Shown: positions 8,801 through 9,280 of the stretch, in pieces
Layout of the letters: each line of letters opens with the position of its first letter
Position numbering within the stretch: the stretch's first letter is position 1
NCBI GenBank assembly: GCA_937898265.1
Contig: CALEJM010000113.1
Span: forward strand, 1 to 9,280
DNA from: an uncultured Porphyromonadaceae bacterium
GTDB taxonomy: Bacteria; Bacteroidota; Bacteroidia; Bacteroidales; Paludibacteraceae
Direction of reading: 5' to 3'
DNA length: 9,280 bases
Notes under the pieces: generated by a model
Seen by the model: only the letters and a program-made list of their open reading frames with translations
What the model was told of the DNA's origin: nothing
Databases searched by the model: none
Program-made: the position numbers and the translations under genes

Positions 8801-9280
8801 ATGAGCAAAAACAACACCCCAACACCTCACATTGAGGCTCAATACGGCGAAATTGCTGAGACCGTCATCATGGCAGGCGATCCACTGCGCGCCAAATTCA
8901 TGGCAGAGAAATATCTCACCGACGCCAAACTCTACAACCAAGTTCGTGGTATGCTCGGTTATACCGGCTACTACAACGGCAAACGCGTCTCCATTCAAGG
9001 TCATGGCATGGGCATCCCATCCATCGGCATCTACACCTACGAACTCTTCAACTTCTATGATGTAAAAAACATTATTAGAGTTGGTACAGCTGGTAGAGTA
9101 TGTGATGAATCATTTGACGAATCACTAGATGGTGTTATTAATAACGCAGCAGTACGTGATGAAGGAACAACAATTCATTACATTCCTGTAGAATATCCAG
9201 CAGTAGCTGATATTTCTTTAGTAAACGCTTTTTCTGCATCGTGTAAATGTTTAGGATATAAAGCACATATAGGTGTTGTT
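8801..9280 (+). CDS. Nucleoside phosphorylase, DeoD-like N-terminus joined to Udp-like sequence; right end cut by window
   Basis: The frame runs 160 codons from ATG 8801 to the edge without a stop. Residues 1 to about 96 fit DeoD purine nucleoside phosphorylase (splits purine nucleosides with phosphate, in salvage): PHIEAQYGEIAETVIMAGDP, VRGMLGYTGYY, HGMGIPSIGIYTYEL and IIRVGTAG. The phosphate-binding arginines Arg30, Arg49 and Arg93 correspond to Arg24, 43 and 87 of E. coli DeoD. Beyond that the DeoD continuation (DVVI...TDS) is absent. Instead NNAAVRDEGTTIHYIPVEYPAVAD and the later LGYKAHIGVV match uridine phosphorylase. The DNA also changes at about 9062: G+C falls from 121/240 to 75/220, and AGA, TTA and CTA codons appear that the first part lacks. 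The N-terminal half therefore reads as deoD of this genome and the C-terminal half as a foreign Udp-type gene, in frame. Assembly chimera or recombination are both possible; no symbol is given for the hybrid. No terminator separates it from the glycosyltransferase. Confidence 0.85.
   Translation, partial: MSKNNTPTPHIEAQYGEIAETVIMAGDPLRAKFMAEKYLTDAKLYNQVRGMLGYTGYYNGKRVSIQGHGMGIPSIGIYTYELFNFYDVKNIIRVGTAGRVCDESFDESLDGVINNAAVRDEGTTIHYIPVEYPAVADISLVNAFSASCKCLGYKAHIGVV
9059..9070. other. Probable chimera or recombination junction inside the nucleoside phosphorylase gene
   Basis: Codon style and protein family both switch here, at codons 87-90 (Asp-Val-Lys-Asn) just before the conserved IIRVGT block. 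Before it, codons such as ATC, CTC, GGC and TAC dominate; after it ATT, GTA, GAT, AGA and TTA. The reading frame is kept. The exact base cannot be fixed because the two families share this block. Confidence 0.65.

What the first reader, a model, noticed from the sequence alone, without database searches (positions are those of the whole stretch)
8801..9280. In-frame DeoD-to-Udp hybrid with an abrupt change in base composition
The first about 88 residues are DeoD-type and written in the GC-richer codons of the rest of the window; the remaining sequence is Udp-type (VRDEGTTIHYIPVEYPAVAD) and AT-rich, 75/220 G+C against 121/240 just upstream. Both families share the nucleoside phosphorylase fold, and the switch falls at the conserved IIRVGT phosphate-binding block, so a working hybrid is conceivable. 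A metagenomic assembly join at a short shared sequence is the simpler explanation. Either way, the last 220 bases should not be trusted as part of this genome without checking.
Basis: partly seen in the sequence, partly recalled or inferred. Interest (0 to 1): 0.7.

Follow-up and report, generated by a model that had tools for sequence, protein, structure and literature searches.

The report
Two-species splice at a contig end
The last 200-odd bases of this Bacteroidales-type DNA fragment switch in mid-gene from a purine-enzyme gene to a different, AT-rich uridine-phosphorylase-type gene most like those of Erysipelotrichales, and this is likely a sequencing or assembly splice rather than a real hybrid enzyme.

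Summary
Residues 1-88 of the open frame 8801-9280 are a Paludibacteraceae-type DeoD: 96.5% identical to L001, whose contig matches six of the window's seven genes in order and carries an intact deoD. From about 9072-9076 the sequence is a Udp-type nucleoside phosphorylase. Its residues 92-137 are up to 98% identical to proteins of an Erysipelotrichaceae-type family. Third-position G+C falls from 54/85 codons to 6/75, lower than in any of 2254 equal-length windows of the fragment's own genes. A second break is probable at residue 137/138 (about 9211): beyond it, identity to 151 aligned relatives is 39% or less. No hybrid was seen among the 120 best of 7999 hits from 5.8 billion proteins, nor in the 133 loci held. 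The frame stays open because both parents are homologous there, so that is no evidence of a real fusion. Best reading: a chimera at a contig end, made by assembly or during library amplification. Reads were not available, so the route is undecided, and a true recombinant is not excluded (about 6%). Bases after about 9056 should not be used as part of this genome.

The parts
8801..9071 (+). Head: first ~90 residues of a Bacteroidales (Paludibacteraceae-type) DeoD purine nucleoside phosphorylase, native to this fragment
   Evidence: 96.5% aa identity over residues 3-88 to L001 deoD, with L001 matching window nth, omp, hyp, M6, GT2 and deoD in the same order; 136.6 bits to NF004489 for residues 1-88
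9056..9095 (+). Join zone: composition changes at 9056; the last stretch like L001 ends at 9075, the first stretch like the Erysipelotrichaceae relatives starts at 9072; L032 (Bacillota DeoD) matches 9040-9093 at 87%
   Evidence: third-position change-point; aligned rows; blastn of 9040-9110
9074..9211 (+). Foreign segment 1, residues 92-137: Udp-type nucleoside phosphorylase of the Erysipelotrichaceae-type family, AT-rich (GC3 3/46)
   Evidence: 98% identity over the segment to P0122 and P0121; DNA 80% to L068 and 81% to L077; GC3
9212..9280 (+). Probable foreign segment 2, residues 138-160: Udp-like tail with no close relative found, also AT-rich (GC3 2/23)
   Evidence: at most 39% identity in 151 aligned relatives although segment 1 reaches 98%; 28 of 41 listed DNA matches in the order of G007, the 12 strongest among them, end at 9210-9212

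Best explanation
The end of this fragment is likely an artificial splice, made by read assembly or by template switching during library amplification, that runs from a Bacteroidales deoD gene into a Udp-type nucleoside phosphorylase gene, probably of an AT-rich Bacillota bacterium. Shown: two sources on either side of about 9072-9076, differing in family, nearest taxon and codon usage. Inferred: the switch occurred in the codons of a motif that both families share (IIRVGTAG), so homologous positions were joined and the frame stayed open without selection. Inferred: a second switch lies at the equally conserved EYPAVAD block at about 9211, so the last 220 bases may hold pieces of two or three further templates. 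The true deoD of this bacterium is expected to be whole, as in L001, but was not seen.
For: Head and tail go to different families and phyla. L001, a Paludibacteraceae genome, matches the window from nth to deoD in order and has an intact deoD. Protein cluster P0001 (12 member sequences, 53 contigs) is an intact Paludibacteraceae DeoD, 93% identical in the head. GC3 falls from 54/85 to 6/75 at 9056, 0 of 2000 shuffles reach this and 0 of 2254 own-gene windows are as low. Second break: residues 92-137 are 98% identical to P0122 while 138-160 are 30%. Of 5597 pairs of relatives at 95% or more in the first segment, 18 have 35% or less in the second, and all 18 involve one protein, P0123, from a 933-base contig. 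No hybrid seen: 0 of the 120 rows carry the tail motifs tested, 0 of 156 tail relatives carry the DeoD motifs tested, and 0 of 133 loci hold a frame with both (72 have the head motif, 28 the tail motif). G001, the genome of L001, has no DNA match beyond 9093. Misassembled contig ends that could come from reads of different species or from PCR-chimeric reads are described in PMC4270193 (one passage read).
Against: No reads, coverage or assembly graph were available. In the nearest relatives the two parents share only about 4 bases at the join (9072-9075), too few for a simple k-mer join, so a bridging template must be assumed (an L032-type Bacillota DeoD fits, 87% over 54 bases) or amplification chimerism. 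No exact donor of the tail was found in any search. The whole tail has one uniform codon style (GC3 3/46 and 2/23), which also fits a single AT-rich donor. The whole frame scores more against DeoD (176.6 bits) than the head alone (136.6), as homologous folds would. The window's own protein was not listed, so that database may lack such partial proteins. That the window end is the contig end is assumed from its odd length, not shown.
Confidence: 0.87

Rival explanations
1. A real in-genome recombination replaced the 3' part of deoD with a foreign udp segment, giving a hybrid nucleoside phosphorylase.
For: The frame is open through both halves. Both families share the Pfam fold PNP_UDP_1 across the join. 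The bases shared at the join in known relatives are few, which does not favour a simple assembly join.
Against: No hybrid in the listed protein hits or in the 133 loci held; in the listed rows no match runs beyond about 9096. The foreign codon style is unameliorated and very sharp. A probable second break 140 bases on and the end of the fragment shortly after would be coincidences.
Confidence: 0.06
2. A variant that overlaps with the best explanation: the tail is one real gene of one AT-rich donor (a bacterium, or a eukaryote that took up such a gene), itself a natural mosaic of two udp paralogues, and only the first join is artificial.
For: Uniform GC3 over both tail segments. Tandem phosphorylase paralogues exist in relatives such as L058 and L078. 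P0123 shows a break at the same EYPAVAD block. Very AT-rich relatives exist (L077 4/46, L110 1/46).
Against: No listed protein holds the whole tail (highest-scoring hit 82% over 90% of residues 93-160), and residues 117-160 as one query gave at best 51 bits. P0123 comes from a 933-base contig and may be a chimera too.
Confidence: 0.4
3. Horizontal transfer of a whole AT-rich udp next to a truncated deoD.
For: Foreign composition.
Against: There is no start or intergenic DNA at the join: the tail begins in mid-protein, in register with the shared motif.
Confidence: 0.01

Closest known systems
DeoD-type purine nucleoside phosphorylase (NF004489 / TIGR00107)
   Same: Residues 1-88 belong to it: 136.6 bits, and 96.5% identity to the intact L001 protein
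   Different: After about residue 91 the sequence leaves the family; the tail alone scores 23.9 bits
Uridine phosphorylase family (TIGR01718) and the Erysipelotrichaceae-type nucleoside phosphorylases (P0122, P0133, L068, L077; of the two proteins only P0133 bears that organism name)
   Same: Residues 92-137 are 93-98% identical to these four
   Different: The head is not theirs, and residues 138-160 fall to 39% or less in the 151 relatives aligned
Chimeric or misassembled contig ends in metagenomes (PMC4270193, one passage of the Discussion read)
   Same: A terminal stretch that does not belong, which that paper says could represent chimeric contigs or PCR-chimeric reads
   Different: That paper concerns viral metagenomes; here no reads could be inspected

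Membership tests
DeoD purine nucleoside phosphorylase | Curated NCBIfam score over the protein (NF004489 cut-off 230 bits) | tested here: not met
   176.6 bits for the 160-residue frame, which is incomplete; the head alone gives 136.6 over 81 positions
DeoD purine nucleoside phosphorylase | DeoD sequence continuing after the phosphate-binding block, as in L001 and P0001 | tested here: not met
   Alignment A1 and the L001 protein: the window leaves DeoD at about residue 91
Uridine phosphorylase | Curated TIGR01718 score (cut-off 280.3 bits) | tested here: not met
   89.4 bits for the whole frame, 50.1 for the tail; incomplete protein
Uridine phosphorylase | Base-binding residues in the C-terminal third (recalled from the literature, from no call) | not testable with these tools
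   The frame is cut at residue 160, before that region
Metagenomic chimera | Two parts with different closest taxa and composition, switching at a conserved block | tested here: met
Metagenomic chimera | No spanning reads or uneven depth at the join | not testable with these tools
   No reads held; no whole genome held for this window
Metagenomic chimera | Shared exact word of assembler size at the join in both parents | tested here: inconclusive
   Known relatives share only about 4 bases (9072-9075), but the true parents were not found

The most novel reading that the evidence does not exclude
A living Paludibacteraceae bacterium carries a trans-phylum hybrid nucleoside phosphorylase, DeoD up to the phosphate-binding block and Udp beyond it, created by recombination inside the shared IIRVGTAG motif.
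Probability: 0.06. Interest if true: 0.6.

Novelty: not a real feature. Interest (0 to 1): 0.08.

Why it matters
As an artefact it matters for curation: the last ~220 bases put an Erysipelotrichaceae-like udp piece onto a Bacteroidales fragment and would be annotated as an intact-looking partial phosphorylase. It shows that an open frame across a join is no proof of a real fusion when the two parents are homologous there. If it were real, it would be a natural swap between purine and uridine phosphorylases of two phyla.

Tried and rejected
A real hybrid was looked for and not seen: species genomes (226 relatives found, best 80 kept), 5.8 billion proteins (best 120 listed of 7999, 398 and 280), 250 genomes of the family of G001 (223 with a match, not all rows listed), 315 of the order of G007 (33 with a match), viral contigs (none), phages (7 records, all under 60% identity), plasmids (100 records; of the 10 rows shown 7 lie on annotated deoD, 3 on no annotated feature). 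A motif check of all 133 loci held found no frame with both halves.

A bridging third parent at about 9057-9092 (AT-rich Bacillota DeoD, L032) was considered. It would fit the composition change at 9056 but is not required, because L001-like sequence continues to 9075 with three differences from 9060 on.

Short DNA matches of the tail in G291 and G502 were followed: no phosphorylase frame showed there, so they were dropped as chance.

Phage or plasmid origin of the tail: no support (the plasmid search used the whole frame). RNA families and repeats of 40 bases or more in the window: none. Literature on a Udp-DeoD hybrid: one search listed 5 papers; only titles and abstract starts were seen, none is about such a hybrid, none was opened. 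Two searches on chimeric contigs listed 1 and 2 papers. PMC6593500: three passages seen, not used as evidence.

Rows dropped: 5 of 156 tail relatives left out of the pair analysis because of gaps. The change-point test compared unequal grids and was repeated.

Full report
What is there. The frame 8801-9280 is 160 codons and open at the window end. Split at residue 88, the head is DeoD (136.6 bits NF004489; 31.6 bits Udp) and the tail is Udp-like (50.1 bits TIGR01718; 23.9 bits DeoD). The whole frame scores 176.6 bits against DeoD and 89.4 against Udp, both below the curated cut-offs. Pfam sees one fold across both, PNP_UDP_1.

Where the head comes from. The best of 80 loci kept (226 found) from species genomes is L001, a Paludibacteraceae MAG from horse feces. 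Its deoD is 96.5% identical to residues 3-88. L001 also matches nth (80%), an outer-membrane-like gene (96%), a hypothetical gene (56%), the M6 peptidase (83%) and the glycosyltransferase (67%) in the window's order. The DUF748 gene at the window's left end (3-1496) has no match in the stretch of L001 held, which begins only about 1.2 kb before nth. L001's deoD is complete and is followed by an unrelated gene that I would call a thioredoxin reductase (name recalled, not tested). The fragment is therefore Paludibacteraceae-like, and its own deoD is expected to be intact. Protein cluster P0001, a 238-residue Paludibacteraceae DeoD counted on 53 contigs, is 93% identical in the head.

Where the tail comes from. 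At DNA level they are 80% identical to L068 (Erysipelotrichaceae) and 81% to L077 (Erysipelotrichia). The exact donor was not found. G001, the genome of L001, has no DNA match beyond 9093. By profile, G001 has three frames that match TIGR01718 below its cut-off: one is its deoD (102.7 bits), the others score 62.7 and 26.9 and were not studied. The control shows that the cut-off is strict: 1 of 14 well-known genomes passes it.

The join. L001 is identical to the window from 9031 to 9059 and nearly so to 9075, then diverges; the Erysipelotrichaceae relatives match from 9072. By homology the switch thus falls in codons 91-92, inside IIRVGTAG, a block that both families share. Third-position G+C changes slightly earlier, at 9056: 54/85 codons before, 6/75 after, reached by 0 of 2000 shuffles. 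No own-gene window of 75 codons is as AT-rich (0 of 2254).

A second break. Beyond residue 137 the similarity to the same family collapses: 30% to P0122, and 39% at most among 151 of 156 retrieved relatives (5 dropped for gaps; themselves the listed part of 398 and 280 hits). Among 5597 pairs of those relatives that are 95% or more alike in the first segment, only 18 are 35% or less alike in the second, and every one involves P0123. P0123 comes from a 933-base contig and shows a break at the same EYPAVAD block. In 315 genomes of the order of G007, 33 have a match. Of 41 listed matches 28 end at 9210-9212, the 12 strongest among them; 5 run further: two to 9214, two to 9231, and one, in no phosphorylase frame, lies at 9248-9280. 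So the second break is probable. Because segment 2 has no close relative and shares the AT-rich codon style (2/23), one donor with an unusual gene is not excluded.

Is it real. Nothing like the hybrid was seen among the 120 listed of 7999 protein hits or among 156 tail relatives tested for DeoD motifs, in the 133 loci held (72 with head motif, 28 with tail motif, 0 with both in one frame), or in viral contigs. The lists are cut-offs, not full inventories. A true hybrid should have ranked first, but the window's own protein was not listed either, so partial proteins may not be held. In-frame continuation is expected for any join at homologous positions and is no evidence for a real fusion. A foreign, unameliorated piece, with a probable second break and the end of the fragment within about 200 bases, is what a chimeric contig end would look like; such ends, from mixed-species assembly or PCR chimeras, are discussed in PMC4270193 (one passage read).

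Result against the simplest version. In the nearest known relatives the two parents share only about four bases at the join. A de Bruijn join needs a longer shared word. So either the true parents are more alike there, or a third gene bridged them (a Bacillota DeoD such as L032 is 87% identical over 9040-9093, and the earlier composition change at 9056 would fit it), or the splice arose by template switching. I cannot decide between these without reads.

Function. If translated, the piece would carry the DeoD-type N-terminus and a shared phosphate-binding block; it is cut before the base-binding part (position recalled), so no substrate can be predicted. I treat it as not a real gene.

Noticed in passing
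L127 (G025:C16), about 2873-3343, minus strand: In another genome drawn from the family of G001, deoD is interrupted by one in-frame TAA near residue 38; a sequence error or a pseudogene, not resolved.
   Followed up: no
window 1524-1617; L001 8385-8475 and 8236-8301: The intergenic stretch between the DUF748 gene and nth is 84% identical, in opposite orientation, to two stretches between the M6 peptidase and glycosyltransferase genes in L001, suggesting a dispersed intergenic repeat; no Rfam match and no repeat of 40 bases or more within the window.
   Followed up: partly
L001 1920-2546 and 3467-4132; 2530-3471 and 4136-4993: L001 carries the outer-membrane-like and hypothetical gene pair twice in tandem (54% and 27% for the second copies), the window only once.
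   Followed up: no
P0123: A 933-base metagenome contig (source jgi) encodes a phosphorylase that also changes family type at EYPAVAD; either another chimera or a natural mosaic.
   Followed up: partly
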